A DNA stretch of 64,000 nucleotides. Source: Marinitoga piezophila KA3 (GTDB taxonomy: Bacteria > Thermotogota > Thermotogae > Petrotogales > Petrotogaceae). The translations under genes were made by a program, and so were the position numbers. The first letter of the stretch is position 1. The number at the start of each line of letters is the position of its first letter. Positions 33,499 to 61,556 of the stretch are shown here, one piece after another. The DNA lies in NCBI RefSeq assembly GCF_000255135.1, contig NC_016751.1, forward strand, positions 248,001 to 312,000, given 5' to 3'. The notes below the pieces were generated by a model. It saw only the letters and a list, made by a program, of their open reading frames with translations, was not told where the DNA came from and did not search any database.

Positions 33499-33552
33499 CA
33501 TTTTATTAATATATCAGATGATAAATTAATTTTATTTAAGGTGGTGGAATAT

Positions 33553-34308: not shown

Positions 34309-34403
34309 AAAAGTAACCATATCTTTTTATAAAATAAATGAAGATATTTCTTTTAATTATATCTAATTTTATAATTAAGAAATTTGTTAGGAGGTTTTAT
34401 GAA

Positions 34404-35783
34404 ATGGTTACAGGTGATCCATTTGTAGACGCTGGCGGAGTTGTTTTAGAATATCTGAAAAATCAGTTCCCAGAAAAAAATATAATCGATTTGATAGATT
34501 TTGCTGCAGAAATTTTTATATATAAATGGAATGGTAAAATTGATTCGCTTCAACTTAATTCTAATATTACTCATAATTCCAAACGGGGTTCTCTCGAAAA
34601 GCAAAAAAAAGCAAAAGAAAACGTAAAAAAATATTTTGAAAATATATTAAATAGTGGGAGCTTTTCTGACGCGAGTGGCTATTGCCGTATTTGCGGAAAA
34701 AAAGGAAAAAATTTTAAAGTTGGGAGAGAAACTTTTCCATTATCTGGATCTGGTAAATTTGTAAATTTTCATCATGGACATGAAAATGGAATTTTGTTAT
34801 GTAATGATTGTATTACAAAACTTTTTTTCTTACCACTTGCTGTATTGCAAATGAGAAAAAATTTAGCACTTCTACATGTTCATAGTGAAAAGATAAAAGA
34901 ATACTGGATAGAAAAGGTAATAAAGAAAAATCTTGATAATTATTCTAAAAATATTTCTGAAGGAATATTAAAATCAAAATTAAATAATCCTAAAAATGCT
35001 TTATTTGAAATGGCATCAGAATTAATAAATGAATTTGAAGCTAAAAATGAATATTTACAACTTTTTTATTTTACAAATTTTGGAGCTAATCCCAATTGCG
35101 AAATTTATATTTTACCTAATCCTGTATTTAGATTTATAAGTAAAGTTTTGCGATATTGCAGAAAAGATTGGTTCGTTTTTATTAAACGATATTATAAGGT
35201 GTCTAAAGCTACTTGGGATTATACTACATTTGAATGGGTTTCAGAAAAAGAAGGTAAAATTACAAAAGATTATTATCAAGATGAAAAAAATATGGTTATT
35301 GAATATTTATTAGAGGGAAAATCATTAATAGGAATTTTAAAAAAATTTTATAGAGAAAACTTTTTAAAAAAGAAAGAAGTTAGTTCTTTAATTTTAGATT
35401 ATTATTTGAAGGAGGTAAAAAATATGGATCTTAAGCAAATTGAGTTAATTAAGCGACTTGGTAAATCTATAATAGAAATTTCACGTAAAGAAAACAATTT
35501 TAAAAAATATCTTACTATGATTGAAGGAGCAAACAAAGCTTTTCAATTAAGAGCTATAATCATTACATTAATTAAAAAACATTATATTAATGGAGAAGAA
35601 AAACCACTGATTACTTTAGATGAATATGTTAATTATCTTTTCCCTGATGGGCAATATTGGAGTGAAATAAGAGATATATTACTTATTTATCTTTATGAAT
35701 TATTACATGAAGAAAATATAAAAAATATTGATGTAGAAGAAAGTAATTTAGAAGAGCCTGAAGATGAATTAATAGAATTTTAA
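34404..35783 (+). CDS. cas8b: Type I-B Cas8b1 (Cst1 family)
   Basis: 460 residues from the ATG at 34404, which has AGGAGG 9 nt upstream; the frame stays open further back but without a ribosome site. The start GDPFVDAGGVVLEYL and the two CxxC pairs (YCRICGKKG near 90, LLCNDCITK near 130) identify the CXXC-CXXC Cas8/Cst1 large subunit, which recognises the PAM within Cascade. The C-terminus is acidic. Lies between cas6 and cas7 in one operon. Confidence 0.85.
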   Translation: MVTGDPFVDAGGVVLEYLKNQFPEKNIIDLIDFAAEIFIYKWNGKIDSLQLNSNITHNSKRGSLEKQKKAKENVKKYFENILNSGSFSDASGYCRICGKKGKNFKVGRETFPLSGSGKFVNFHHGHENGILLCNDCITKLFFLPLAVLQMRKNLALLHVHSEKIKEYWIEKVIKKNLDNYSKNISEGILKSKLNNPKNALFEMASELINEFEAKNEYLQLFYFTNFGANPNCEIYILPNPVFRFISKVLRYCRKDWFVFIKRYYKVSKATWDYTTFEWVSEKEGKITKDYYQDEKNMVIEYLLEGKSLIGILKKFYRENFLKKKEVSSLILDYYLKEVKNMDLKQIELIKRLGKSIIEISRKENNFKKYLTMIEGANKAFQLRAIIITLIKKHYINGEEKPLITLDEYVNYLFPDGQYWSEIRDILLIYLYELLHEENIKNIDVEESNLEEPEDELIEF

Positions 35784-35795
35784 AGGAGGGGTAAA

Positions 35796-36848
35796 ATGAA
35801 TACAATTCAAGGATTTATGCTTATTGATGTGGATGTTGCAGCATTAAACAATGCAGGTAATGATACTTCTACAACTTTAGATAATGCAGTTATGACTAAA
35901 AAAATAAGAAAAGATGGGAAAGAATATCCATATGTTTCTGGTCAAGCATGGAGATATTGGTGGCGCGAAACATTAATGAGAAATTTTAATTGGCAAATAT
36001 CTCCTATTATAAGAGAAAAAAAGATAGCTTATACTGAAGCCGATCCATTAAAATATGCTGATGATGATATTTTTGGATATATGAGAGCGGGGAAAAAAAA
36101 TATTATTGATACAAAAACAGGAAAATCAAAATCAATAAATGTAACTTTAACCAGAGTATCTCCTTTAAAAAATTCAGCTTTAATTGCTGTTTCTTATAAT
36201 CCGATAGTTCAGCATTGGTCTTCGATGTCCAGGCATGAGGGAGATGCTGTTCCATATGGAAAAGATGAATATTGTGCAATAATGAAAGGAATGTTTTCAA
36301 TAGATCTGGATATGGTTGGTACTTTTTCTTCCATGAATAAAACAGGTTTTCAAAATATAAATGAAGATATGAGGCAGTTGTATCTTGAAAAAGAAGGTGT
36401 TTTTGAAATTGATGATCCATTTGCAAAAGATATCAATGGTAATCCATTAAAACTTATAAGACTTCCAAAAGAAATTAGAGAGCAAAGAGTTAAAGATGTC
36501 ATCTTAGCTTTAAAATATTTATCTGGAGGAGCAAAACAAACTACAAATTTTGCAGATGTTACACCTAAAATAATTGTTCTTGCTATTTTAAAATCAGGCA
36601 ATCATCCATTTTCTCATCTTGCAAAAGAAGAAATGGGTAAAGCTGTATTTTCTGTAGATGCACTTAAAGAAGTAATAAATGATTATCAAGATAAATTTGA
36701 TAATAAAATATTTGTTGGAAAAAGGAAAGGATTTATGGACGAAATTGAAAGTGATTTGATAAAATTAAAAGAAGAAAATCTTATAGAATATGGATCAGTT
36801 AATAAAATAATAGATAAATTTGTAAAAACTATTGATTTAGGAGAGTAA
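35796..36848 (+). CDS. cas7: Cas7 backbone protein (DevR/Cst2 family)
   Basis: 350 residues. The N-terminal MLIDVDVAALNNAGND and KEYPYVSGQAWRYWWRETL segments and TRVSPLKNSALIAV are typical of the DevR/Csa2/Cst2 branch of Cas7, the RRM-fold subunit that lines the crRNA in Cascade. AAAGGAGGGG precedes the ATG by 6 nt. Cas5 begins 2 nt after its stop. Confidence 0.9.
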   Translation: MNTIQGFMLIDVDVAALNNAGNDTSTTLDNAVMTKKIRKDGKEYPYVSGQAWRYWWRETLMRNFNWQISPIIREKKIAYTEADPLKYADDDIFGYMRAGKKNIIDTKTGKSKSINVTLTRVSPLKNSALIAVSYNPIVQHWSSMSRHEGDAVPYGKDEYCAIMKGMFSIDLDMVGTFSSMNKTGFQNINEDMRQLYLEKEGVFEIDDPFAKDINGNPLKLIRLPKEIREQRVKDVILALKYLSGGAKQTTNFADVTPKIIVLAILKSGNHPFSHLAKEEMGKAVFSVDALKEVINDYQDKFDNKIFVGKRKGFMDEIESDLIKLKEENLIEYGSVNKIIDKFVKTIDLGE

Positions 36849-36850
36849 TT

Positions 36851-37507
36851 ATGAAAGTATATAGAATCTATATTTCAAGTTGGACAGCATCATTTAGATA
36901 TCCTAATTTAATCAGTGGTTTTCAACCAACTTTATTAGTACCACCGTTTTCAACAATAAATGGACTTATCTCATCTGCAAAAGGAGATTATTTTATACCT
37001 CAAAAAGAGAAGATAGGATATGTTTTTAGAGCTAAATCAAAAAATATAGATCTTGAAACCATATATCAAATGGAAAAATCTCTTAAAAATATAAAATCGA
37101 ATGTCATAAAAAGAGAGTTTTTAGTAGAAGCTGAATTGTTTTTATATACAGATAGTAAAGTTATTGCTGGATACTTTTTAAAACCAAAATATCAATTATT
37201 ATTGGGCCGCTCAAGTGATTTGGCGACAGTTAAAAATATTGATGAAATAGAAATTGAAGAAAAAAATAATTTAAAAAATTTGAAAGGAACAATTATACCT
37301 TTAAAATATGGTATAATGCCAGGAGTTATCCATGCTTTACCTAAATATTTTTCAAATACTATTCCAAGAAAGAATATAGGAACTCAACCATATTGTATTT
37401 TAGACTGGAATTATAAGCAGGAAGAAATTACAATACATGCTTTGGGTTTTTCAGATTATGACAAAAAATTAAAAATAGATTGGGATGTTTACTGGCAAGA
37501 ACCATAA
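36851..37507 (+). CDS. cas5: Cas5 Cascade subunit (Cas5t type)
   Basis: 218 residues. The N-terminus YRIYISSWTASFRYPNLISGFQPTLLVPPFSTINGLISSAKGDYF is the Cas5 RRM with the PP-S-x-x-G-L signature after the first strand. Cas5 caps the 5' handle of the crRNA. Because Cas6 is separate, this Cas5 need not be catalytic. It follows cas7 by 2 nt; a 50-nt gap with a short ATCGC/GCGAT repeat separates it from cas3. Confidence 0.88.
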   Translation: MKVYRIYISSWTASFRYPNLISGFQPTLLVPPFSTINGLISSAKGDYFIPQKEKIGYVFRAKSKNIDLETIYQMEKSLKNIKSNVIKREFLVEAELFLYTDSKVIAGYFLKPKYQLLLGRSSDLATVKNIDEIEIEEKNNLKNLKGTIIPLKYGIMPGVIHALPKYFSNTIPRKNIGTQPYCILDWNYKQEEITIHALGFSDYDKKLKIDWDVYWQEP

Positions 37508-37557
37508 ATAACATCGCTTGCACATATAGGCGATATTATAAAAGTGAGGTATTTGAT

Positions 37558-39909
37558 ATGAAATCAGTCAAATCAAATGAAAATTTGATATTAGCAAAAT
37601 CTGACGGAACAACTCTTTTAGAACATATTGAAGATAATATTGTAATATTAAATAATTTAAAAAGAATGTTACCATTATTACCCAAAATAACTAAACTCGA
37701 TAATTTTTGGGATATTCTTTTTTCTACAATTTTTTTTCATGATTTTGGAAAAATTCATAAAGAATTTCAAAAGTATATAAAAGGAGAAAAAAATTTATGG
37801 ACAAAACAAAGACATGAGATTTATTCAATACCATTTATAGATAAACTTAATCTGGATGAAAGATATATAAAACTTATAAAAAAAGTTATATTATCTCATC
37901 ATAAGTCGTTTTATGAACTAAAATATAATTATCTTAAAAGCAAAGAAGATCTGGAATATGAATATGAACTTAATTGGAAAAATAAAACGAAATTTCATCC
38001 GCAAGATTATGAAGGAAATCTAAAGTATAACTTTGATAAAAAAGTAATTGATTTTTATATAAAAAAATTCGACGAACTTGCGAAAAAATACCATATATCA
38101 GTTCAATTAAAAAACGAGAAAATCAAAATTAATAATATAAGAAATCCTATTGAGGAGTTTGCATATAATTTAGAAAAATATAATAAAGAAGAATATTTAC
38201 AGCATCTTTTATTATGGGGAAGTTTAAAAATTTGTGATCATCTTGGATCTGCGAAAATCATAGAAATCTATATGTTTGAAGAAAAACATTTTGTTTTTTT
38301 AGATGAAATGAAAAGAAAGATAGAATTTTATGATCATCAAAAGAAGTGTTTTTCTATTAAAGGTTCATGCTTGTTAATTGCACCTACAGGTTCAGGTAAA
38401 ACTGAATCTGCTATAGGATGGGTAAAAACACAACTTGAAAATAAACAGGGTAGGGTATTTTATGTTTTGCCTTATACAGCATCAATAAATGCAATGCATA
38501 AGAGATTAATAAAAAATATGGATAGAAGTGCTTCAAAAATATCAAATATAATAGGTATTTTGCATGGTAATATATCTCATTATATTTCAATTTATTTTGA
38601 AGAAGGTATTACTAAAAATGAAAATTCTATTAGAAATAAAAAAATAAAAAAGATTATAAAACAATATAAAAATTTACTTTCCCCCCTAATTGTGTGTACA
38701 CCTTTTCAACTTTTAAAGTATTTCTATGGAGTTAAAGGTTTTGAAAAGGGCTTTGTTTTTTTCTCTGGTGCAAAACTTATTTTTGATGAAATACATGCTT
38801 ATGATATAGTTACATTTGCACAAATTGTTGTAATGCTTGAGGTTTTAAAAAAGGATTTTTTATGTGATGTTATGATAATGACAGCTACAATTCCTACTTT
38901 TATGCAAAATATCCTTGCTGAGCGATTGAATATTGATAATATTATTACTGCTGATAAAAAATTTGTTGAAAAATTGAAAAGACATAAAATAAAAATAGTT
39001 GATAAAAATATATTTGATTTTATTGATAGTAATTTCCGTAAAATAATAAATAATCACAATAAAATTATTTTAGTTTGTAATACAGTTGAACAATCGCAAA
39101 AAGTTTATATGAAAGTTAGAGATATGAATATTTGTTCTGATAATGAAATTGTACTTATTCATGGAAGATTTAATCAACATGATAGGAATGATAAAGAAAA
39201 AGCTATTTACAACCAAAAAACTAAAATTCTTATAGGTACTCAAACAATTGAAGTAAGTCTTGATATAGATTATGATGTTATGATTACTGAACCAGCTCCT
39301 ATCGATGCGTTATTACAAAGATTTGGAAGAGTTAATAGAAATTCTAAAAAGAAACCAGCACCTGTTTATATTTGTAGAAAGGGTGGAGAGTATGATCACT
39401 ATATTTATCCTATTAATAAAATAGAAAAAACTTTAGAAGTTCTTAATGATGTAGATATACTTTGTGAAAAAAACATTGGTAATTTGATTGATGAAGTTTA
39501 TCCAAATTGGAACGATTTTGAGAAAAAAGAATTTGAAGATACTGTTTCTTTATTCAGAAATTCATTAAAAAGTCTTCAGCCATTTTCGGATACAAAAGAA
39601 ACAGAGGAATTTTATTATAGTAAATTTACAAATATTAAAGTTTTACCTGCTTGTTATTATTCAAAATATATTAATCTTATGGAATTATATAATTTTATTG
39701 AAGCTGAGAAACTCTTGGTAAATATAAATAGAAATTTTTTTTATAAGTATATAAAAGAAGGGAAAATTGAAAAAAGAGAGTTGGTTTTGTCTGAAGATGA
39801 AAAAATATTAAAAAAACATTCTTTTTATATTATTAAATGCAAATATAATTCGGAAGTTGGTCTTATAAATGAATATGAAGAAATAAAACATGATATAAAT
39901 TTTATATAG
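37558..39909 (+). CDS. cas3: CRISPR helicase/nuclease Cas3
   Basis: 783 residues from the ATG at 37558, with GTGAGGT upstream; an upstream extension overlapping cas5 lacks a ribosome site. HD nuclease domain first (FFHDFGKIHKEFQKY; LSHHKSFYEL; the metal-binding His and Asp are present), then the SF2 helicase: LIAPTGSGKTESAIGW (Walker A), LIFDEIHAYD (DExH), VMIMTATIP (motif III) and LQRFGRVNRN (motif VI). It degrades the target DNA after Cascade binding. No frameshift or missing motif. Confidence 0.94.
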   Translation: MKSVKSNENLILAKSDGTTLLEHIEDNIVILNNLKRMLPLLPKITKLDNFWDILFSTIFFHDFGKIHKEFQKYIKGEKNLWTKQRHEIYSIPFIDKLNLDERYIKLIKKVILSHHKSFYELKYNYLKSKEDLEYEYELNWKNKTKFHPQDYEGNLKYNFDKKVIDFYIKKFDELAKKYHISVQLKNEKIKINNIRNPIEEFAYNLEKYNKEEYLQHLLLWGSLKICDHLGSAKIIEIYMFEEKHFVFLDEMKRKIEFYDHQKKCFSIKGSCLLIAPTGSGKTESAIGWVKTQLENKQGRVFYVLPYTASINAMHKRLIKNMDRSASKISNIIGILHGNISHYISIYFEEGITKNENSIRNKKIKKIIKQYKNLLSPLIVCTPFQLLKYFYGVKGFEKGFVFFSGAKLIFDEIHAYDIVTFAQIVVMLEVLKKDFLCDVMIMTATIPTFMQNILAERLNIDNIITADKKFVEKLKRHKIKIVDKNIFDFIDSNFRKIINNHNKIILVCNTVEQSQKVYMKVRDMNICSDNEIVLIHGRFNQHDRNDKEKAIYNQKTKILIGTQTIEVSLDIDYDVMITEPAPIDALLQRFGRVNRNSKKKPAPVYICRKGGEYDHYIYPINKIEKTLEVLNDVDILCEKNIGNLIDEVYPNWNDFEKKEFEDTVSLFRNSLKSLQPFSDTKETEEFYYSKFTNIKVLPACYYSKYINLMELYNFIEAEKLLVNINRNFFYKYIKEGKIEKRELVLSEDEKILKKHSFYIIKCKYNSEVGLINEYEEIKHDINFI

Positions 39910-39991
39910 TTTAATATTAAATATGAAATTAGTCTTTTCACAAATAAACGATTTTATCAAAACAGAAAAAATCAAGGGAGTATGATTTTAT

Positions 39992-40495
39992 TTGAAAAAT
40001 AAAATAAAAATATATGGCAGTTTAATACAATCATATTTTATCTGTAAAAGACAAACATGGCTACTTGCTCATCAATTGATTGGTGAGCAAGATAATATGT
40101 TTATAGAAATAGGAAGATTTATAGCAGAAAAAAGTTATCAAAATACGAAGAAAGAAATTAAAATTGATGGCGGAATAATAGACTTCATAAAAAAAGAAAA
40201 TGGAAAAACAATAGTTGCTGAAGTAAAAAAATCCTCTAAAAATATAAAAAGCGCAGAATATCAATTACTATTTTATCTAAAAAAATTAAAAGGGAAAATT
40301 GATATTCAATATGCGGAAATAAGAATTCCCGTTGAAAAAAAGATTATAAAAATTGAATTAACAGAAGAAAAAGAAAAAGAATTAGAGAAAATAGAAGAAG
40401 AAATTATAACCATAATTAATAAAGAATTACCTCCAATGCCAGAAAAAATAAAGTATTGTAAAACTTGTTCATATCAAAATTTTTGTTGGGGATGA
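39992..40495 (+). CDS. cas4: Cas4 exonuclease of the adaptation module
   Basis: 167 residues, TTG start with GGGAGTATGA upstream. RecB-type nuclease core: GGIIDFI, the E-x-K of VAEVKKSS and YQLLFYL. The four iron-sulfur cysteines are one near residue 20 (YFICKRQTW) and three at the C-terminus (YCKTCSYQNFCWG). Cas4 trims prespacers and selects PAMs with Cas1-Cas2. Separated from cas3 by 82 nt and from cas1 by 4 nt. Confidence 0.92.
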   Translation: MKNKIKIYGSLIQSYFICKRQTWLLAHQLIGEQDNMFIEIGRFIAEKSYQNTKKEIKIDGGIIDFIKKENGKTIVAEVKKSSKNIKSAEYQLLFYLKKLKGKIDIQYAEIRIPVEKKIIKIELTEEKEKELEKIEEEIITIINKELPPMPEKIKYCKTCSYQNFCWG

Positions 40496-40499
40496 AAAA

Positions 40500-41495
40500 A
40501 TGAAAGAGACCATATATATATTTAGTAGTGGCGAATTAAAAAGAAAAGATAATTCAATAGTTTTTATAACTTCTGACAACAAAAAAAGATACATACCTAT
40601 TGAAAATTTAAAAGAAATATTGATTTTTGGAGAAGTAAATATTACTAAAAAAACGCTTGAATTTTTAAGTCAAAAGGAAATAATAGTTTCATTTTATAAT
40701 TATTATGGATATTATATGGGAAGTTATTATCCTCGAGAGCATTATAATTCGGGATATATGATTTTAAAACAAGCTGAACATTATATAAATGAAATAAAAA
40801 GAAGCAAACTTGCAAAAAGTTTTGTAATAGGAGCAACAAAAAACTCCTTAAAAATTTTAAAATATTATAATCGTAGAGAAAAAAATCTTGAGGAATATAT
40901 AAAGAAGATAGAATCTCTTTTAATGAAATTAGAAAAGAAATCGAAAATTAAAGAAATTATGACAATTGAAGCAGAAATAAAAAAAGAGTATTATAAAACA
41001 TTTAAAATAATTATAGAAAATGAAGCTTTTGAATTTTCCAAAAGAAGCAAAAGACCTCCTGAAGATAGAATAAACGCATTGATAAGTTTTTCTAATTCTA
41101 TAATATATAATATGATTTTAAAAGAAATATATACAACTCATCTTGACCCAAGGATAGGTTATTTACATACTACAAATTTTAGAAGATTCACATTAAATCT
41201 TGATATAGCAGAAATATTTAAACCAGTAATAGGAGACAGAACAATATTTAATGTCATAAATAAAAAAATAATAAACGAAAAACATTTTGAAACTGGAATA
41301 AGTGGAGTCTTTTTGAACAACAAAGGAAAACAAAAATTTCTTGAAAAATTAGAAGAAAGATTAAAACAAACAATAAAACATTATAAATTAAATAAAAGAG
41401 TAAGCTATAGATATCTAATAAAAATAGAATTATATAAACTTGAAAAACACTTAATTGGAGAAGAAGAATACAAACCTTTTGTAATGGAGTGGTAA
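40500..41495 (+). CDS. cas1: CRISPR integrase Cas1 (type I-B)
   Basis: 331 residues. N-terminal beta domain (YIFSSGELKRKDNSIVF; ENLKEILIFGEVNI), then the helical catalytic domain; expected metal ligands are Glu in MTIEAEIKKEYY, His in YLHTTNFRRF and Asp in LNLDIAEIFKPVIGD. Integrates spacers with Cas2. Its stop precedes the Cas2 start by 2 nt. Confidence 0.94.
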   Translation: MKETIYIFSSGELKRKDNSIVFITSDNKKRYIPIENLKEILIFGEVNITKKTLEFLSQKEIIVSFYNYYGYYMGSYYPREHYNSGYMILKQAEHYINEIKRSKLAKSFVIGATKNSLKILKYYNRREKNLEEYIKKIESLLMKLEKKSKIKEIMTIEAEIKKEYYKTFKIIIENEAFEFSKRSKRPPEDRINALISFSNSIIYNMILKEIYTTHLDPRIGYLHTTNFRRFTLNLDIAEIFKPVIGDRTIFNVINKKIINEKHFETGISGVFLNNKGKQKFLEKLEERLKQTIKHYKLNKRVSYRYLIKIELYKLEKHLIGEEEYKPFVMEW

Positions 41496-53978: not shown

Positions 53979-55448
53979 TTATTCAATCTGTTTAAAATTA
54001 ATTTCAATAAACTTATCTTTATAAACGATAATCCTTTCAATTAGCTGATTATAAATTTCTATTAATTTATCTTCATCATAATTTTCTAACGCTTGAATTT
54101 TTTCTCTCCATTTTTTCTTTAATCTTTCAGGTGTTTCCGTATCAAAATGCATATCTGCCATTTTAATTTGGTTTATGATATCATTTTTTTCTTTAGTTAG
54201 CAACTCATTTTCTTTTTTTATTTCATCATTAATTATTCCTGCTTTTATTGCATTTGTAATATTTATCAGTTGTTCTTCAATCTCTTCTAATCTTTTTCTT
54301 AAAGCTAAAACTTTTTCATTTTCAATATTCATTTTTAATTTTTTTACATAATTAAGTGTTTCAGCAAATTCTTCCCAAAATTCATCATCGTCAAAATCAA
54401 ATTCCAATAACCTATGCTTAACGTGTAAAAATACTTCACGTTCAATTTTGCTTTTGGCTATACCTATATATCCTCTTGTTTTTCCAGAATGCCAGGCGGA
54501 AGAAACATAAGATGGAGTTTTTCCTCCTGCTCCTACCATTCTGTCTCCGTTTTCAGTATATATTAACCCTTTTAAAAGATACTTATGTCTTGTTAATGCA
54601 TTAGTTAGTTTCCCATTTTTTCTATTTACTTCTTCAAAAACTTCTCTGCTGATAATAGGTTCAACAAAATTTTCTATAATTACTGCATCTTTCAATTCTG
54701 ATGATCTTTTCCTACTTCTCTTATTACCTTTTCCATAAATATATATCCCAGCGTATAATGGATTGTTGATCATATCTAAAATCGTTGATCCTCTCCATAG
54801 ATTTCCACGCGCATTTTTTATACCTCGTTCATTTAAACGCTTGGCGATTTCAGAATAACCAATATTTTTTAATCTTAATTCAAAAATTTCCCTTACAATC
54901 TTAGCCTGTTCTTCGTTTATTTTTAGCTTTCTTCTTTTCTTCCCTTCATCGTCAATAATTTGATAACTATCAAAACCAAAAGGTGGATTCCCACCCATCC
55001 AGTATTTTTTTGAGGCAATATCTTTCATTCTCATTTTTGTCCTTTGCGAAATCATTTCTCCTTCAAGTGTATAAGAAGCAAGAATTATAGTTCTTGTAAA
55101 ACGACCTTGAGGCGTTGAAACATCGAAAGGTTCTAAAGCAGCAATAACAAGAACATTGTAATTCTTTTCTAAATCCTGAATTATAACCTGTCCATCAATA
55201 CCAGCTCTGGAAAAACGATCGTACTTTTCAACAAGAATTACATCATATTTCCCTTTATATGCATTTTCTAAAAGAATGTCTAACTGTTCTCTTTTCATTT
55301 TCTTTCCAGAGTCTTTATCCGAAAAATAATCTACAATTTTAAATCCATATTGTTTTGCAAAATTTTCTATTGTTTTAAACTGCCCTTCAATTGATATTTT
55401 TGATTGATCTTTTGTCGAAACTCTTGCATAAGCTGCAGCCTTTTTCAT
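53979..55448 (-). CDS. Large serine recombinase (integrase)
   Basis: 489 residues. Resolvase domain with the catalytic Ser in YARVSTKDQ (Ser10) and the arginines of EKYDRFSRAG; recombinase domain GGNPPFGFDS and NERGIKNARGNLWRGSTILDMINNPLYAGIY; zinc-ribbon region GLIYTENGDRMVG, where the usual Cys pair is replaced, so a zinc site is doubtful; then a coiled coil. Such enzymes integrate phages by attP x attB recombination. A 55-residue ORF ends just upstream. Own promoter at 55710-55738. Confidence 0.9.
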   Translation of the reverse strand: MKKAAAYARVSTKDQSKISIEGQFKTIENFAKQYGFKIVDYFSDKDSGKKMKREQLDILLENAYKGKYDVILVEKYDRFSRAGIDGQVIIQDLEKNYNVLVIAALEPFDVSTPQGRFTRTIILASYTLEGEMISQRTKMRMKDIASKKYWMGGNPPFGFDSYQIIDDEGKKRRKLKINEEQAKIVREIFELRLKNIGYSEIAKRLNERGIKNARGNLWRGSTILDMINNPLYAGIYIYGKGNKRSRKRSSELKDAVIIENFVEPIISREVFEEVNRKNGKLTNALTRHKYLLKGLIYTENGDRMVGAGGKTPSYVSSAWHSGKTRGYIGIAKSKIEREVFLHVKHRLLEFDFDDDEFWEEFAETLNYVKKLKMNIENEKVLALRKRLEEIEEQLINITNAIKAGIINDEIKKENELLTKEKNDIINQIKMADMHFDTETPERLKKKWREKIQALENYDEDKLIEIYNQLIERIIVYKDKFIEINFKQIE

Positions 55449-55450
55449 AG

Positions 55451-55618
55451 TTATTCACTTCCCTCCTTGCTAACCTTTTGTAGTAAAAGCAAAAACTTAT
55501 AAAATGCGTAAAGTTCGTCTTGATTGAGTTTTCTTTCATCCCAAAACATAAATCCAAACTCTTTAAGTAAGTCTAAATCTTCTTCACTAACTAATACACG
55601 AACTATAATCATTTGCAT
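55451..55618 (-). CDS. Small ORF in front of the recombinase
   Basis: 55 residues beginning MQMIIVRVLVSEEDLDLLKE and ending FLLLLQKVSKEGSE. ATGs at 55618 and 55612; GAGGTG stands directly before the first and 6 nt before the second, so 55612 may be the true start. The recombinase ATG is 2 nt past its stop, and GGAGGGAAG inside it serves the recombinase. Possibly a recombination directionality factor or regulator, which is only a guess from position and size. Confidence 0.55.
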   Translation of the reverse strand: MQMIIVRVLVSEEDLDLLKEFGFMFWDERKLNQDELYAFYKFLLLLQKVSKEGSE

Positions 55619-55662
55619 CACCTCAAACACATTTTAATATTTTCTTACTGAAGTGATGCAAA
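55612..55662 (-). promoter_or_regulatory. Inverted repeat burying the small ORF start codon
   Basis: GTGATGCAAA (55653-55662 on the plus strand) and TTTGCATCAC (55612-55621) are perfect 10-bp complements, 31 nt apart. In the minus-strand RNA the second arm contains the start codon and half of the ribosome site of the small ORF, so folding would block translation. Confidence 0.5.
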
Positions 55663-55740: not shown

Positions 55741-55768
55741 AAAAAAATGCCGGAATTTTAGTCCGGCA
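55741..55768 (-). terminator. Terminator of the defence-like operon
   Basis: TGCCGGA/TCCGGCA stem (55768-55762, 55754-55748), 7-nt loop, then seven T on the minus strand (55747-55741), directly after the DUF4325 gene. Confidence 0.88.
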
Positions 55769-56140
55769 TTATATTCTATGATAATTACTTTTAAAATGAT
55801 TTAAAATATGAAGTGGAACTTTTTTATAAGCATATTTATCAGGCTTAAAAATAAAATCTCTAACTCTATCTATTTTTATTAATTTGCCTATTGATTTTAC
55901 TGAATTTTGTGCATTCTTAAATTTTATCCTTTTGAATACTATAGGGCCATACTCAGAAAAAAGCGTTCCTACGGCTTGATCTAAAAAACTGTGAGTAACA
56001 ACATTTATGTTATTAAAATCTATGTATATAATATCTTTTGTATTTTCAAGATATTTTTTTAAAATTATTCTTAACTTTTCTCCTTCATATCTTGTCCCTA
56101 AAATATCAGTGTTATACATTTCAAAAAGTTTTATGAGCAT
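55769..56140 (-). CDS. DUF4325 (STAS-like) protein
   Basis: 123 residues from the ATG at 56140 with GGGGGCGATT upstream. The segment DIIYIDFNNINVVTHSFLDQAVGTLF followed by IKFKNAQNSVKSIGKLI is the DUF4325 pattern, an alpha/beta STAS-like fold (compare LDFEGVxxITxSFxDE). Such proteins are usually found beside a histidine-kinase-like ATPase, and the next gene upstream is one, 17 nt away. By analogy with anti-sigma antagonists it could form a regulatory switch, but there is no direct evidence. Last gene of the operon. Confidence 0.7.
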   Translation of the reverse strand: MLIKLFEMYNTDILGTRYEGEKLRIILKKYLENTKDIIYIDFNNINVVTHSFLDQAVGTLFSEYGPIVFKRIKFKNAQNSVKSIGKLIKIDRVRDFIFKPDKYAYKKVPLHILNHFKSNYHRI

Positions 56141-56156
56141 ATAATCGCCCCCTTGT

Positions 56157-57122
56157 TTACCATTCTTCGTCGAAATCTTCATCTAGTATTATATCACTAT
56201 TTACATTTTTATTCAAGTATTCTGATGTTTCATTTAAAAGCATTTCATGTAAAATGTCATAATCAAAAATATTTTCATTATTAATAGACAATGCAAAAAG
56301 CGTCCCATCTATTATATTATATTTAAATTCTTTTTTTATAGTTTCTTTTCCTCTTTTTATAAAATACAACCCTTTTTTTGAAATTACTAACAAATTCCAC
56401 TTATTCATTTGAACATATCTTTTTATATAATATAATCCAGCACCCCGATGATCACTCCCAAAATATATTCCACTATTTTTTTTGCTAGAAACACCAAAAT
56501 CCAAAGATTTTTCTATTAGTAAGTGATCCATACTTATATTTTGGAAAAAAGGCTTTAAAGTTGCAGGTATTCCGACTCCAAGATCACCAACACTAAAAAT
56601 TATTTTTTCAGTAGAACTGGAATGATATTTTTGAGACATTAATAAAGCTCCGATCGAACTTTCGGCATGAGAGAATATATTATCCAGCAATTCTCTGATT
56701 TGATATCCTAAAAATCTTGCTAAATCTTCATCTTTTATTACTTTTTGAAAATGCTTTTCAACATCTGGTATTTCTTCTATTGAATATATTTCTTTCATTT
56801 CAAGGAAGCGATTATTCGAATCATGCTTAACATGTGGATATTCTAAATAATCAATTCCTAACTTATCAAAAAAATTCATTCTATTTAAGTAATCAAACAC
56901 ATCTGAATTTAGTTCTAAAATATTAACATTAATTTTAATTCCTTTGTTTTCTAAATTTTTTATCAAAAGAACCAAAAAATTTGCTCCAAAAGGATCTACA
57001 AAACTAACTTTTGAAAAATCGAATAAAATTTCATTTCCATTATTAAAAGATTGCTGAGTTAAATTAATTAAGGTTAAAACATTATCTAAAGTAACTTTGT
57101 TTGGTAGTTCAATAACTTCCAT
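56157..57122 (-). CDS. STAS domain plus HATPase (GHKL) protein
   Basis: 321 residues from the ATG at 57122, with AGGAGGGA at an ideal distance; a frame extension to 57161 lies over that site. Residues 1-95 form a STAS-like domain (EILFDFSKVSFVDPFGANFLVLL). The rest is a GHKL ATPase: N-box RELLDNIFSHAESS, G1 VGDLGVGIP, G2 DHRGAGLYYIKRY. No DHp or phospho-acceptor His, so not a normal sensor kinase. The acidic C-terminus ends LDEDFDEEW. With the downstream DUF4325 protein it makes a two-gene module of unknown role. Confidence 0.75.
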   Translation of the reverse strand: MEVIELPNKVTLDNVLTLINLTQQSFNNGNEILFDFSKVSFVDPFGANFLVLLIKNLENKGIKINVNILELNSDVFDYLNRMNFFDKLGIDYLEYPHVKHDSNNRFLEMKEIYSIEEIPDVEKHFQKVIKDEDLARFLGYQIRELLDNIFSHAESSIGALLMSQKYHSSSTEKIIFSVGDLGVGIPATLKPFFQNISMDHLLIEKSLDFGVSSKKNSGIYFGSDHRGAGLYYIKRYVQMNKWNLLVISKKGLYFIKRGKETIKKEFKYNIIDGTLFALSINNENIFDYDILHEMLLNETSEYLNKNVNSDIILDEDFDEEW

Positions 57123-57173
57123 GGTATCCCTCCTAAATCTTATTTTTATTTTAGCCTCCAAGAGGTTATCCCC

Positions 57174-58973
57174 TCAATTCCTCTCGTACTCCTCGAGTTT
57201 AACAGGAACAAAATGTCCAAATCTATCTTTTGTATATGTTCCTTTCTTTAAGCCTTCTTCAATAGCTAATGTTTCTCTATATTCTGCTGCTTCAGCCTGG
57301 ATTGTCCATTTTGCTTCAATTCCTTCTTTTTCAAGAAATTCCTTGATTTCAGCTATAGTTACTTTGAAAAATTCCTTTCTTAAATTTACTTTGTTCATCC
57401 TTTTTTCTTCAAAGAATTTATGTAATCTGTTTTCCAACTCCGGAGCATTTTCACTATAAATTAAAGCATGAACATCAAATGGAAATGGAACACTTGCATC
57501 TCCTAATTCTCTAACTCTATCAAGCGGTTCTAATCTTCTTGTCATACCAATTTTATAAACATTTTCACCAAAAGAACCTATATTTGAAATTATATAAACA
57601 TGACCAGCTTTTGTTTGCTGTGCCATAGATATAGCTCTTTGATTTCGTGCTTCGGCTTCTTCGAGTTTTTGTTTCAATTTTTCTAATTGAGCTTCGTATT
57701 TTGCTTTTTGCTGTTCAGTAGCTACTGCAAGTTCGGCTCTAACCTTTTCCATAGCTTTTTGCAACATTTCTTCTTCTTTTTGAGCTTCTTTTAATGCTTT
57801 TTCGATTTCTCTTCTTGCTTTTTCTTCTTCTCTCATTTGTTCTCTGATTCTTCTTTGTTCTTCCATATCTTTAAGTTTTAATTCTTTTAAAAATGTTGCG
57901 TATTTCAATTCATCTAATTTCAATTGCAAATATTCATTTGTAACTCGCGCATTTTGAAATGGCTTCCCTAACTTATTAACAAGATGGAATGCATCTATAA
58001 TTTTTTGCCTTAAAATACCATAATTATCATGTTTTACTTTTGCCATAATAGTAGCAACTTTTCCATTAAATGCGTCTATAACAAAATCTTTAGCGTTATC
58101 TGCTCTATAATGATCTGCATAATCACATTTTGCGGCTGTTCTATCTTTAATCATTTTTCTCATGGTTTTTCTAATTTCTTTAATCTTTTGAGATGCTTCG
58201 CTATATCCATATTCTTCAATTAACTCGTCTAAAACAGTATAAGTTGGTATAATATATTCATTCCCATAACCATTTATGGTGTTTCTCAAAGCTTTTTCAA
58301 TTTTTCTTAATTCTTCAATTTTCTTTTCAAGTTGTTCCTTTTCCTTTGCATTTTCATAAGCATCACCAAGAATTTCTTTAGCTTTCTTTTCTGCTTCAGC
58401 TATAATATATTGCGCTTTTTGTTGTGCTTTGGCAAGAACAATATCAACATTTGAATTAGGCTCTTCCTTATATTTTTTATCCTCTTCTTTAGAGTTTATC
58501 TTCCCTTCATAAGATATATCTTCATTTTTATCTTGATTATTTTTTTTACCCATTAATTCTTTTAAATGAAATTCTAAATCTTCTATCTCTTTTTCTATAT
58601 TATGAATTTTTTCGTAAATATTTTTAGCTTCATTTTTTAACTTTTCAGCTTTAGCCATTTTCTTTTTATAAGTCCATTCTTTACCTGTCAAATTCCTTTC
58701 TATTTCAGCAGCTTTATTAATTAAAGAATCAGCTTCTTTTTTTAATGCTTTTATAAGTTTATTCTTTTTATTGATATCTTTTTTAATAATCTCCATACGC
58801 ATTGCTTTTGAAAAGAGAATTATAAATTCTAATAAAAAAAGAAAACCTAATATATAAAATAGTAGGTTATTAACATTCATCCCATTAAAAGTAATATCTT
58901 TAGCTATTCCGCTAATTAATATACCTAAAATACTTCCAGAAATAAGAGTCAAAAAGGTCATGAGTTTAATCAT
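57174..58973 (-). CDS. Membrane-anchored DUF4041/GIY-YIG nuclease (SNIPE-like)
   Basis: 599 residues. Two N-terminal membrane helices (about 4-25 and 36-56), a long charged coiled coil (60-240), a DUF4041 region (about 245-350, with TAAKCDYADHYRADNAKDFVIDAFNG), a second coiled coil (385-450) and a C-terminal T5orf172-type GIY-YIG nuclease: GHVYIISN, YKIGMTRRLEPLDRVRELG and the catalytic Glu region ELENRLHKFFEEKRMNK. The same order (membrane anchor, DUF4041, GIY-YIG) is that of SNIPE, a recently described nuclease that cuts phage DNA as it enters at the membrane. Starts 51 nt upstream of the STAS/HATPase gene. Confidence 0.82.
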   Translation of the reverse strand: MIKLMTFLTLISGSILGILISGIAKDITFNGMNVNNLLFYILGFLFLLEFIILFSKAMRMEIIKKDINKKNKLIKALKKEADSLINKAAEIERNLTGKEWTYKKKMAKAEKLKNEAKNIYEKIHNIEKEIEDLEFHLKELMGKKNNQDKNEDISYEGKINSKEEDKKYKEEPNSNVDIVLAKAQQKAQYIIAEAEKKAKEILGDAYENAKEKEQLEKKIEELRKIEKALRNTINGYGNEYIIPTYTVLDELIEEYGYSEASQKIKEIRKTMRKMIKDRTAAKCDYADHYRADNAKDFVIDAFNGKVATIMAKVKHDNYGILRQKIIDAFHLVNKLGKPFQNARVTNEYLQLKLDELKYATFLKELKLKDMEEQRRIREQMREEEKARREIEKALKEAQKEEEMLQKAMEKVRAELAVATEQQKAKYEAQLEKLKQKLEEAEARNQRAISMAQQTKAGHVYIISNIGSFGENVYKIGMTRRLEPLDRVRELGDASVPFPFDVHALIYSENAPELENRLHKFFEEKRMNKVNLRKEFFKVTIAEIKEFLEKEGIEAKWTIQAEAAEYRETLAIEEGLKKGTYTKDRFGHFVPVKLEEYERN

Positions 58974-59011
58974 AATATCCCTCCAATTCGCCGTTAAAAT
59001 TTTAGTATTAT

Positions 59012-59107
59012 TTACAATTTAACTAATCCGAAAGCTAAATCAAAGATAAAAACTAAAATAAAGCAAATACATAATACAACAATTATTTTCTTATCATAAT
59101 TTTCTAT
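59012..59107 (-). CDS. Possible 31-residue membrane peptide
   Basis: Open frame with no ATG: from an ATA at 59107, 4 nt after GAGGAAAG... it reads ENYDKKIIVVLCICFILVF then IFDLAFGLVKL and a TAA. One membrane helix. It fills the gap between the methyltransferase and the SNIPE-like gene on the same strand. The ribosome site overlaps the methyltransferase stop. Start codon is non-standard, so existence is uncertain. Confidence 0.3.
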   Translation of the reverse strand: MENYDKKIIVVLCICFILVFIFDLAFGLVKL

Positions 59108-59116
59108 CTTTCCTCA

Positions 59117-60673
59117 CTAAAATAATTTTATTTTCTTTACTGGTTCTTTTCTTCTTGGAGCTTTTCTAGAATATTTTCTTTGTAAAGGAATATATAATTT
59201 TTGCCCATTTAATAACTGCTCTATAGTAATTATTCTAACTTTTGGTATTGAATCTTCAGAATATTTTGGCTTATATTTTCCAGCACTTATAGCTTCTTTT
59301 AACATTGGTCGAGTTGGTTTTTGTAGAGTTATAAAAATCCCAAAAGGGGCTTTTTCTCTTTCAATTGTTCCAACAAAATCTCTAATATCTTTGACGGAGA
59401 CTTTACCACTTTTTACTTGAACCAATGCTTTTTTAACTTCTTCTATTTCATCAAAATATATTATTCCATCGATTCCATCATCAGCTCCTTTTTTTTCCAA
59501 TGGTTTAGCTCCAACCAACCCACAAGCCCAAATTTGGAATTCCATTCTATCATTTAAAGCTAATTCTTTAGCTGCTTCAACTGTTAAAGGTTCTCCGTGA
59601 ACTTCAAATGTATCTTTTATATCAATACCATATCTATCAGACAACCTATGCTTTATTAAAGTAATAGCTAAATGAGTAATATCTATTCCAATCCATTTTC
59701 TATTTAAGTTTTGCGCAGCATCAATTGTAGTTCCACAACCACAAAATGGATCAAAAACAATATTTCCCTCAGTAGATGATACAGAAAGAATTTTTTTTAA
59801 TAACTCAAGAGGTTTTTGTGTAGGATAGCCTAATCTTTCCTTAGCTGATTGATTTAATTGTTCTATATACCAATAGTCAGGTTCAGTTAATCCTTTTCTT
59901 TCATCTAGGTAAACTCGAACAGTTAATTCAGGATGTTCTTTTTCCCAAATAGGATCAACATCTTTTGCACTTTTTATAGGGGAACCTACAATTCCTCTTC
60001 CACAAAGTCGGTATTTTCTTCCAGTTTCGTCAATTAATTTATATTTTTTTATTGTTTCTTCAGATAAAGGTTCTAAAACCTTTGTATAATCAAAATAATA
60101 TTTATTAGTTTTAGTATAAAATAAGATAATATCATGTTTTCTGTTAAATCTTTTCTTTGAATTTGGTCTTGATTTATAACACCATACAATTTCATTTTTA
60201 AAATTCTTTACTCCAAATATTTGATCCATAATTACTTTAATATAATGACTCATTGTTGGATCACAATGCAAATAAATTGAAGCAGTTGGTTTCATTATTC
60301 TATATATTTCTAATAATCTAATAGTAAGCATAACTAAGTATGCAGTAGCATCATTTCTTCCTAACGCTTTGACAAAACCATTAATTAAATCTATTAGTTT
60401 TGGTGTTGAATTTGGATGTTCTCGAATAGCTATTAGCGTTTCTTCAGAATCAGGCCCCCAATGCCACGTATCATCAAAAGCTTTTATTTGAGCAGGCGAA
60501 TCATTTTTATCCATTTCCTTAAAAATAACATTATAACTTCTTTTCGAATTAAAAGGTGGATCTAAATATACCAAATCAACAAATTCATCTGGTATATATT
60601 TTTTCATAACTTCTAAATTATCCCCAAAAAAAAGTTTATTTTTCCAATTCTCTAGCTTCCAATTGATGCTCAT
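59117..60673 (-). CDS. DNA methyltransferase fused to a PD-(D/E)xK endonuclease domain
   Basis: 518 residues. Beta-class N6A/N4C methyltransferase: motif IV DLVYLDPPFNSKRSYN near residue 35 comes before the target-recognition part, and motif I FDPFCGCGTT near 320 after it. From about 400 a restriction-type domain follows: GADDGIDGIIYF, then the ALVQVKSGKV motif (Asp...Gln-x-Lys of Mrr-like nucleases) and FGIFITL. A basic tail ends it. Methylase and cutter in one chain without a separate specificity gene is unusual; a type IIG-like or Mrr-type enzyme is possible. First gene of the operon behind a 28-bp palindrome. Confidence 0.85.
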   Translation of the reverse strand: MSINWKLENWKNKLFFGDNLEVMKKYIPDEFVDLVYLDPPFNSKRSYNVIFKEMDKNDSPAQIKAFDDTWHWGPDSEETLIAIREHPNSTPKLIDLINGFVKALGRNDATAYLVMLTIRLLEIYRIMKPTASIYLHCDPTMSHYIKVIMDQIFGVKNFKNEIVWCYKSRPNSKKRFNRKHDIILFYTKTNKYYFDYTKVLEPLSEETIKKYKLIDETGRKYRLCGRGIVGSPIKSAKDVDPIWEKEHPELTVRVYLDERKGLTEPDYWYIEQLNQSAKERLGYPTQKPLELLKKILSVSSTEGNIVFDPFCGCGTTIDAAQNLNRKWIGIDITHLAITLIKHRLSDRYGIDIKDTFEVHGEPLTVEAAKELALNDRMEFQIWACGLVGAKPLEKKGADDGIDGIIYFDEIEEVKKALVQVKSGKVSVKDIRDFVGTIEREKAPFGIFITLQKPTRPMLKEAISAGKYKPKYSEDSIPKVRIITIEQLLNGQKLYIPLQRKYSRKAPRRKEPVKKIKLF

Positions 60674-60695
60674 ATTATCCCCCCATTTTTATTTG

Positions 60696-60723
60696 AATTA
60701 ATATATCACCTGATATATTAATT
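60696..60723 (-). promoter_or_regulatory. 28-bp palindromic operator at the methyltransferase promoter
   Basis: AATTAATATATCA and TGATATATTAATT are perfect 13-bp inverted arms separated by CC. It ends 22 nt before the methyltransferase start codon and includes -10-like TGATATATT on the minus strand. The ATATCA/TGATAT core is shared with the CI/Cro operators at 61413-61490, so the same repressor may act here. Confidence 0.65.
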
Positions 60724-60751
60724 AAAAAAGCGAGACCCTCGAGGTCTCGCT
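60724..60751 (-). terminator. Terminator of the CI-like repressor gene
   Basis: GCGAGACC/GGTCTCGC stem with a 5-nt loop; on the minus strand it is followed by TTTTTTAATT. Starts at the repressor stop codon. Confidence 0.88.
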
Positions 60752-61372
60752 TTATTCCCATCTTTCATATTTCCCTACTACTTTACCAACAATAATTATG
60801 TCGTCCCAATTTCTTTTTGGGATTACTATTGGCGGATGATTTTCATTTAAACTAATTAATGTTATAGCATTTTCAGATTGATAATATTTTTTTACTACGC
60901 CTTCATTTCCATTAATAATAATCACTCCGATTTCGCCATTTTCAAGAATAGGTTGTTTTAAAACTACGGCAATATCACCGTCTTTAAGACGAGGTTCCAT
61001 GGAGTCTCCTTTGATTATTAAACCAAAATCTCCTCGCATTCCTTCAGGGATAACGATAAAATCGAGTAATTCTTCATATGCAACTTCACCATGCTGACTA
61101 TTTGCTGCAACATATCCATATACAGGAATTTGCTTTAAACTGAGTTTGTTGTCTTCGATATTTTTAATTTTATTATCTATTCCCAAAAGAAAGTCTACTG
61201 AGACATCTAATAATTTTGCTAATTCTGAAGCAATTTTAATATCAGGAATTGATTTTCCTCTTTCCCACATAGCAACAGTGGACTGACCTACATGAAGTAA
61301 ATCAGCCAAATCTTTTTGTCTTAAATTTTTATTTAATCTTGCACGTTTCAACCTTTCAGCAAATTTTTCCAC
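60752..61372 (-). CDS. CI/LexA-like repressor (XRE HTH plus S24 peptidase)
   Basis: 206 residues. HTH (FAERLKRARLNKNLRQKDLADLLHVGQSTVAMWERGKSIPDIK), linker, then the S24 fold with Ser in GDSMEPRLKDGD and Lys in EGVVKKYY, the self-cleavage dyad. The expected Ala-Gly or Cys-Gly cleavage site reads GYVAANSQHG, with Ala-Ala in place of Ala-Gly, so autocleavage may be weak or absent. It should keep the element silent and respond to DNA damage. Divergent from the Cro-like gene. Confidence 0.88.
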   Translation of the reverse strand: MEKFAERLKRARLNKNLRQKDLADLLHVGQSTVAMWERGKSIPDIKIASELAKLLDVSVDFLLGIDNKIKNIEDNKLSLKQIPVYGYVAANSQHGEVAYEELLDFIVIPEGMRGDFGLIIKGDSMEPRLKDGDIAVVLKQPILENGEIGVIIINGNEGVVKKYYQSENAITLISLNENHPPIVIPKRNWDDIIIVGKVVGKYERWE

Positions 61373-61412
61373 AATTTCACCTCAAAAATAATTATACACT
61401 AAAATCAATAAT

Positions 61413-61439
61413 ATTGATATTTATATTTTGAATATCAAT
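61413..61439. promoter_or_regulatory. Operator-like inverted repeat on the repressor side
   Basis: ATTGATATT (61413-61421) and AATATCAAT (61431-61439) are perfect 9-bp inverted arms, in the divergent control region and sharing the ATTGATAT element of the operator at 61474-61490. The minus-strand -10 for the repressor is probably TATAAT at 61394-61389. Confidence 0.55.
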
Positions 61440-61467
61440 TTTTAATATAAATTTCATATTTTTGTAA

Positions 61468-61496
61468 TTGACATATCAATTCAATTGATATATAAT
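61468..61496 (+). promoter_or_regulatory. Early promoter with the operator filling its spacer
   Basis: TTGACA (61468-61473), TATAAT (61491-61496), and between them exactly 17 nt that form the perfect palindrome TATCAATTCAATTGATA. Repressor bound there would block polymerase. Drives the Cro-like gene and the following early genes. Confidence 0.85.
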
Positions 61497-61556
61497 ATCA
61501 ATGTAAATGATTTTTAGAAGAAAAAAATTGATTCAAATGATATAGGAGGTGAGTAA

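What the first reader, a model, noticed from the sequence alone, without database searches (positions are those of the whole stretch)
55741..60723. Repressor-linked multi-gene defence cassette in an integrative element
On one strand, between a 28-bp palindrome at the promoter and a strong terminator, lie: a methyltransferase fused to a PD-(D/E)xK domain, a possible membrane peptide, a membrane DUF4041/GIY-YIG nuclease, a STAS/HATPase protein and a DUF4325 protein. Gaps are small and no internal terminator is seen. Each part is known or suspected separately; I do not know this combination as a described system. The ATPase/DUF4325 pair could gate the nucleases, and the shared ATATCA core suggests control by the element's CI-like repressor. 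The operon and the joint function are inference.
Basis: partly seen in the sequence, partly recalled or inferred. Interest (0 to 1): 0.8.

Follow-up and report, generated by a model that had tools for sequence, protein, structure and literature searches.

The report
Prophage slot stacking three defence modules
The stretch is the cargo region of the known prophage MPV1 of a heat-loving bacterium; it stacks a known DNA-cutting phage defence (SNIPE), a DNA methylase joined to a nuclease-like domain, and a two-gene kinase switch related to CapKS/VapKSC. These known kinds travel separately, so it is probably not one new system, but what the orphan switch controls is an open question.

Summary
The genes are real and lie on one strand between the CI repressor and serine integrase of Marinitoga prophage MPV1 (OZ018341.1). 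Identities: 57174-58973 is SNIPE (PD-lambda-1; PADLOC E 2e-117; Glu514 aligns with catalytic Glu414). 59117-60673 is a beta-class DNA methylase with an Mrr-like C-terminus. 56157-57122 and 55769-56140 are a SpoIIAB-like STAS-GHKL kinase and a DUF4325 STAS protein of the newly published CapK/CapS and VapK/VapS kind (DUF4325 profile hits the VapS structure, E 9e-11), but without CapS's winged helix, CapK's HTH, or VapC (no PIN domain in the genome). The four-gene order was found nowhere else. SNIPE and the methylase occur alone beside integrases in other phages; the kinase-DUF4325 pair recurs in 78 of 89 loci (52 fused), never beside SNIPE. The 28-bp palindrome is beyond chance, but its half-site spacing (N2) differs from the CI-cro operators (N7), so CI control is not supported. 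The 'membrane peptide' has no standard start codon. Best reading: stacked independent morons plus a DNA-damage-type switch whose target is unknown. That the switch gates SNIPE is possible, unlikely and testable.

The parts
53979..55448 (-). large serine integrase of prophage MPV1 (boundary of the cargo slot, not part of the cassette)
   Evidence: Pfam Resolvase + Recombinase; phrog_95 integrase E 4e-100; MPV1_48
55746..55770 (.). two-way terminator-like hairpin closing the cassette
55769..56140 (-). DUF4325 STAS protein ('S'), 123 aa with a C-terminal tail; invariant Ser51-Phe52
   Evidence: PF14213 E 5e-16; profile matches VapS 9z7o E 8.9e-11, protein alone E 2e-4; Ser-Phe invariant in 95 of 95; model pLDDT 92, matches SpoIIAA/RsbV at Z 6.3-6.9
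56157..57122 (-). STAS-GHKL protein-kinase-like ATPase ('K'), 321 aa; E144-N148-H152, D180-G182-G184 and G227-G229-L230 all present
   Evidence: STAS and HATPase_c weak hits; phrog_3364 E 7e-40; motifs invariant; model matches SpoIIAB at Z 9.2-9.9 over residues 103-285
57174..58973 (-). SNIPE (PD-lambda-1) membrane GIY-YIG nuclease with DUF4041
   Evidence: PADLOC PD-Lambda-1 E 2e-117; DUF4041 E 2e-17, T5orf172 E 9e-16; Glu514 = Glu414 of E. coli PD-lambda-1; hydrophobic stretches
59117..60673 (-). beta-class N6/N4 DNA methyltransferase (DPPF at 38, DPFCGCGTT at 308) with C-terminal Mrr-like domain (D402, Q419-V-K421)
   Evidence: N6_N4_Mtase E 1e-47, Mrr_cat E 5e-10; motifs
60696..60723 (.). 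28-bp inverted repeat AATTAATATATCA-GG-TGATATATTAATT (minus strand), 22 nt before the methylase start codon
60727..60753 (-). terminator-like hairpin at the end of cI, separating it from the cassette
60752..61372 (-). CI-like repressor, HTH + S24 peptidase (boundary of the cargo slot)
   Evidence: Peptidase_S24 E 9e-24, HTH_3 E 1e-16
61402..61513 (.). CI-cro operator region with three ATATCA-N7-TGATAT-like sites and a perfect TTGACA-17-TATAAT promoter at 61468-61496 (+)

Best explanation
The stretch is the lysogenic-conversion (moron) slot of temperate siphovirus MPV1, between cI and the integrase. It holds three separately mobile modules that would be expressed in the lysogen: (1) SNIPE, which on published evidence sits in the membrane and cuts siphovirus DNA during injection; (2) a methylase fused to an Mrr-like nuclease fold, probably a one-chain restriction-modification or self-marking enzyme; (3) a kinase-substrate switch of the CapK/CapS-VapK/VapS kind, in which a SpoIIAB-like kinase, probably switched on by single-stranded DNA, would phosphorylate Ser51 of the DUF4325 STAS protein and release whatever that protein holds. 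Shown here: the identities, intact catalytic motifs, SpoIIAB/SpoIIAA-like models, and the separate distribution of the modules. Inferred: expression in the lysogen, phosphorylation, ssDNA activation, and nuclease activity of the Mrr domain. The target of the switch is unknown, since both published outputs (DNA-binding CapS and toxin VapC) are missing.
For: Prophage MPV1: 9,454 bases collinear with OZ018341.1, attR at a tRNA-Glu. SNIPE: with PMC13190303. SNIPE alone between repressor and integrase in phage KP12, alone in PhiR26_1, and in Marinitoga virus MCV2 with other neighbours. Methylase-Mrr alone beside a serine integrase in Streptomyces phage Hippo and near an integrase in Mycobacterium phage Amgine. 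Kinase-DUF4325: together in 78 of 89 loci, 52 as one chain and 26 adjacent, with no SNIPE and one weak methylase hit (E 7e-5) among neighbours; same pair on plasmids and in Streptococcus phages. Ser-Phe invariant in 95 of 95; GHKL E, N, H, DxG and GxGL residues invariant or nearly so. VapS hit. SpoIIAB fold match. Published mechanism.
Against: No transcript or protein data exist here, so operon structure and lysogenic expression are inferred. The genes are tightly packed (51 nt from SNIPE to kinase, 16 nt from kinase to DUF4325), which allows a functional link I cannot exclude. In the three phage homologues the Mrr motif QVK reads SVK, so nuclease activity is uncertain. The deposited MPV1 record carries a 190-bp frame shift that breaks SNIPE, so SNIPE may be inactive in some stocks. 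The ssDNA-contact residue (CapK W68, VapK F54) could not be placed in this kinase.
Confidence: 0.78

Rival explanations
1. One gated system: the VapKS-like pair has been rewired to a nuclease beside it. The DUF4325 protein holds SNIPE (or the methylase-nuclease) inactive, and the kinase releases it when phage DNA or damage is sensed.
For: Tight spacing, one strand and one closing terminator. VapS directly inhibits a nuclease toxin in VapKSC through its STAS domain and C-terminal tail; this DUF4325 protein also has a long C-terminal tail. CapKS often lies behind restriction systems (88 of 443); here 3 of 25 unfused pairs lie directly behind HsdR. No VapC exists in the genome.
Against: E. coli SNIPE defends alone and is held off by membrane anchoring. 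No other pair-SNIPE neighbourhood was found in 89 loci, and MPV1 is the only phage record with both. MCV2 keeps SNIPE in the same slot without the pair.
Confidence: 0.1
2. The pair is an anti-sigma / anti-anti-sigma module for the phage's own sigma-like factor MPV1_16 (OZ018341.1 8077-8559) and times late gene expression.
For: SpoIIAB and SpoIIAA are the best structural matches; MPV1_50 is annotated 'putative anti-sigma factor' and MPV1_16 'RNA polymerase sigma factor'.
Against: Orthologues of MPV1_16 exist in MCV1 and MCV2 (49-50% identity), yet no kinase hit was found in either virus and no DUF4325 gene in MCV2's slot. MPV1_16 has no Pfam match. The pair is widespread next to unrelated genes.
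Confidence: 0.08
3. The pair is a remnant: a VapKSC-like operon that lost its toxin and has no current function.
For: No PIN-domain gene in the genome; the only full-length kinase copy in the phylum sample.
Against: Both frames are intact with all catalytic residues; 24 of 25 unfused pairs elsewhere also lack a close downstream gene, and 52 loci have the two fused, so toxin-free forms are the rule in this sample, not decay.
Confidence: 0.12

Closest known systems
SNIPE / PD-lambda-1 (Vassallo 2022, PMC9519451; Saxton 2026, PMC13190303)
   Same: N-terminal membrane stretch(es), DUF4041, C-terminal GIY-YIG nuclease with the catalytic Glu at the matching position; carried by a prophage
   Different: Two hydrophobic stretches instead of one; 599 aa against 500; lies in a multi-gene slot; activity not tested
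VapKSC (Chambers 2026, PMC13373217)
   Same: STAS-GHKL kinase without HTH plus STAS protein with C-terminal region and conserved Ser; kinase gene first
   Different: No VapC, and no PIN domain in the whole genome; neighbours are SNIPE and a methylase fusion
CapK/CapS (Chambers 2026, PMC13373217)
   Same: Kinase-STAS pair in a defence context, often near restriction systems
   Different: Kinase lacks the N-terminal HTH, STAS protein lacks the winged helix, and the pair lies downstream, not upstream, of the defence genes
SpoIIAB/SpoIIAA and RsbW/RsbV
   Same: GHKL kinase with ExxxNxxxH N-box and STAS partner with Ser; best fold matches
   Different: Kinase carries an extra STAS domain; DUF4325 is a divergent STAS family; no sigma factor gene adjoins
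Phage methylase with Mrr-like tail (e.g. Streptomyces phage Hippo gp48)
   Same: Full-length similarity, 44% identity in alignment; lies beside the integrase
   Different: QVK instead of SVK at the nuclease motif; host and phage unrelated

Membership tests
SNIPE (PD-lambda-1) | DUF4041 domain | tested here: met
   PF13250 E 2e-17; PADLOC PD-Lambda-1 E 2e-117 over residues 144-577
SNIPE (PD-lambda-1) | GIY-YIG nuclease with catalytic Glu (E414 in E. coli SNIPE) | tested here: met
   T5orf172 E 9e-16; E514 aligns with E414 of PhiR26_1 PD-lambda-1
SNIPE (PD-lambda-1) | N-terminal membrane anchor | tested here: met
   Hydropathy peaks at residues 2-20 and 37-55; location in the membrane itself not tested
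SNIPE (PD-lambda-1) | Cuts phage DNA during injection | not testable with these tools
   Needs phage challenge
VapKSC | STAS-GHKL kinase without HTH (VapK) | tested here: met
   Domain order, length 321 aa, motifs and SpoIIAB fold match
VapKSC | STAS protein with short C-terminal region and conserved Ser/Thr (VapS) | tested here: met
   VapS hit E 9e-11 with the family profile; invariant Ser51; C-terminal tail about 30 aa. Caution: HMMER places a VapS Pro opposite Ser51 and a Ser one residue before it, so the exact residue match is not settled
VapKSC | VapC-like PIN toxin gene in the operon | tested here: not met
   No PIN (PF01850) match in the whole genome; the same search rings in 10 of 14 control genomes
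CapKS | HTH on the kinase and winged helix on the STAS protein | tested here: not met
   Kinase starts at its STAS domain; the DUF4325 protein is 123 aa, STAS plus tail only
CapKS / VapKSC | Kinase activated by ssDNA, phosphorylates the STAS Ser | not testable with these tools
   Needs kinase assay
One-chain restriction-modification enzyme | Methylase motifs plus active PD-(D/E)xK nuclease | tested here: inconclusive
   Methylase motifs invariant; D402 and K421 invariant, but the middle residue is Q in MPV1 and S in three homologues
Single co-transferred defence system | Gene order conserved in other genomes | tested here: not met
   Not found in 103 Thermotogota genomes, phage records or 89 pair loci

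The most novel reading that the evidence does not exclude
A VapKS-like, DNA-damage-sensing kinase-STAS switch has been rewired from an RNase toxin to the membrane DNase SNIPE (or the methylase-nuclease) beside it. That would be the first regulated SNIPE and a third output for the CapKS/VapKSC switch.
Probability: 0.1. Interest if true: 0.75.

Novelty: new variant of a known kind. Interest (0 to 1): 0.42.

Why it matters
It puts names and mechanisms on the cargo of a prophage from a deep-sea thermophile. It also shows that kinase-DUF4325 pairs without a close toxin gene or DNA-binding domain, many of them fused into one chain, are common across bacteria. The paper found describes only the CapS and VapC outputs, so what toxin-free pairs control is open and easy to test. 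SNIPE in MPV1 also bears on the MPV1-pMP1 piracy: a lysogen with SNIPE might resist DNA, including plasmid pMP1, injected through MPV1-type tails (inference).

Tried and rejected
Joint four-gene system: rejected as the leading reading for lack of a conserved neighbourhood. CI control through the palindrome: not supported, spacing N2 against N7. Membrane peptide: no standard start codon. Sigma-factor partner: weakened by MPV1_16 orthologues in MCV1 and MCV2. VapC toxin: none in the genome. Recurrent neighbours of the pair across 89 loci: only HsdR and recombinases recur across unrelated hosts; the rest looks like shared chromosomal context of related genomes. PADLOC DrmA hits to both kinase (E 1e-9) and DUF4325 (E 7e-5) fall in order on one 1750-position model, hinting at a fusion to a DISARM-type protein; not followed up. 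Scans of viral contigs with single proteins returned only MPV1 itself. Foldseek gave no significant hit for DUF4325 (best E 0.25), and VIA Z values under 8 are weak on their own; no VapS entry appeared among the fold matches, so only the sequence match supports that link. Text searches for DUF4325 found almost no literature.
Full report
What was checked. The four long genes, their order and strand are as described. Domain searches give a methylase with an Mrr-like tail, a DUF4041/GIY-YIG protein, a STAS/HATPase protein and a DUF4325 protein. The two long hairpins that bracket the cassette are present: one closes cI at 60727-60753, the other closes DUF4325 at 55746-55770. The 28-bp repeat at 60696-60723 is the longest perfect inverted repeat of the phage, with no equal in 40 shuffles.

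Where it is. The element is the prophage MPV1 of Marinitoga piezophila: 9,454 bases align end to end with OZ018341.1. Outside a 190-bp stretch the two differ at one base. The prophage ends at a tRNA-Glu with a short shared core AGCCCCAC. MPV1 is inducible by mitomycin C and packages plasmid pMP1 (PMC11921389). The four genes fill the slot between cI and the serine integrase. In a relative and in unrelated temperate phages this slot carries variable cargo: MCV2 has a SNIPE with different neighbours there, and KP12 has SNIPE alone between repressor and integrase.

SNIPE. The protein at 57174-58973 matches PADLOC's PD-Lambda-1 at E 2e-117. Its Glu514 falls on Glu414 of E. coli PD-lambda-1, the residue whose change abolishes defence in the 2026 Nature paper (PMC13190303). 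It has two hydrophobic stretches near the N-terminus, as 7% of homologues do. Membership is met on every sequence feature tested; function is not tested.

Methylase fusion. The protein at 59117-60673 is a beta-class methylase, with DPPF before DPFCGCGTT. D402 and K421 of the Mrr-like domain are invariant in four phages, while the middle residue is Q here and S in the others. Full-length relatives stand alone near integrases in Streptomyces and Mycobacterium phages. Mycobacterium phage Mask has both a methylase fusion and a GIY-YIG protein of the SNIPE type close by, but on opposite strands. One Thermotogota genome has a relative at 55-57% identity in a 479-aa frame, without SNIPE or the kinase.

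Kinase and DUF4325. The pair is the most informative part. A profile of DUF4325 proteins finds one strong match in the PDB, VapS, at E 8.9e-11; the MPV1 protein alone finds it at E 2e-4. The paper that names VapS (PMC13373217) describes CapK and CapS, in which an ssDNA-activated GHKL kinase phosphorylates a STAS-winged-helix repressor, and VapKSC, in which the same kind of switch frees an RNase toxin. The MPV1 kinase has the VapK layout (STAS-GHKL, no HTH), an intact ExxxNxxxH N-box and DxGxG and GxGL boxes, and a model that fits SpoIIAB best (Z 9.2-9.9 over about 130 residues). The DUF4325 protein has the invariant Ser-Phe (95 of 95) and a STAS model close to SpoIIAA and RsbV (Z 6.3-6.9; weak on its own). 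It lacks a winged helix, and the genome has no PIN domain at all. So the pair is like VapK and VapS but is not a VapKSC operon, and it is not CapKS.

How the pair is distributed. In 89 loci found with DUF4325 profiles, 52 have kinase and DUF4325 in one chain and 26 have them adjacent in the order kinase-DUF4325. None has SNIPE within the fetched flanks. Of 25 unfused pairs, one has a gene within 60 nt downstream, and three sit directly behind a type I restriction subunit. Neighbours include restriction, methylase and recombinase genes. A kinase-STAS module without a close toxin gene, often fused, is thus common. The paper's main text does not mention fusion, SNIPE or Thermotoga; I did not read its datasets.

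Regulation. The CI-cro region holds three sites like ATATCA-N7-TGATAT and a perfect sigma-70 promoter. The palindrome has the same hexamer with N2 spacing. One dimer geometry would not normally read both, although CapS itself reads two spacings, so CI control is unlikely rather than excluded. The palindrome could equally act as an RNA hairpin or as an operator of a cassette protein.

Judgement. The best reading is a stack of independent defence morons in a prophage slot, one of them a switch with an unknown target. Gating of SNIPE or the methylase by the pair remains possible at about one in ten. The decisive tests are a kinase assay, a pull-down of DUF4325 and plaque assays with and without the pair.

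Noticed in passing
window 58547-58736; OZ018341.1 about 38874-39063: The deposited MPV1 record reads the SNIPE gene one base out of frame between two poly-A tracts, so it is annotated as three small genes; the KA3 genome reads it intact. Either sequencing error or loss in a phage stock.
   Followed up: partly
89 loci L032-L120: Single-chain fusions of the GHKL kinase and DUF4325 are more common (52) than adjacent pairs (26) in this sample; their function seems undescribed.
   Followed up: partly
window 55769-57161, against PADLOC model PDLC02567 (DrmA, 1750 positions): Both the kinase and DUF4325 match the first 400 positions in order, which suggests a natural fusion of the switch to a DISARM-type DrmA protein.
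   Followed up: no
window 53935 and L145 711-785: MPV1 ends at the 3' end of a tRNA-Glu (CTC) gene although its integrase is a large serine recombinase.
   Followed up: partly
window 55451-55630 (-): A 53-59 aa gene lies 2 nt upstream of the serine integrase gene, with a weak match to phrog_13023; could be an integrase partner.
   Followed up: no
L007 8701-10051: MPV1 carries a weak MqsR-like toxin match and a Panacea (SocA-like) antitoxin gene next to its sigma-like gene.
   Followed up: no
L045, L067, L068: Kinase-DUF4325 pairs follow an HsdR gene with 14 nt or less between them in three Bacteroidota genomes, a repeat of the restriction link reported for CapKS.
   Followed up: partly
L028 (Mycobacterium phage Mask) 4486-8210: Methylase-Mrr fusion and a SNIPE-type GIY-YIG protein lie near each other on opposite strands next to a tyrosine integrase.
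   Followed up: no
window 33541-41495: A type I CRISPR-Cas gene set (cas6, cas8-like, cas7, cas5, cas3, cas4 and cas1-like frames) lies about 12 kb left of the prophage, judged from the ORF translations only.
   Followed up: no
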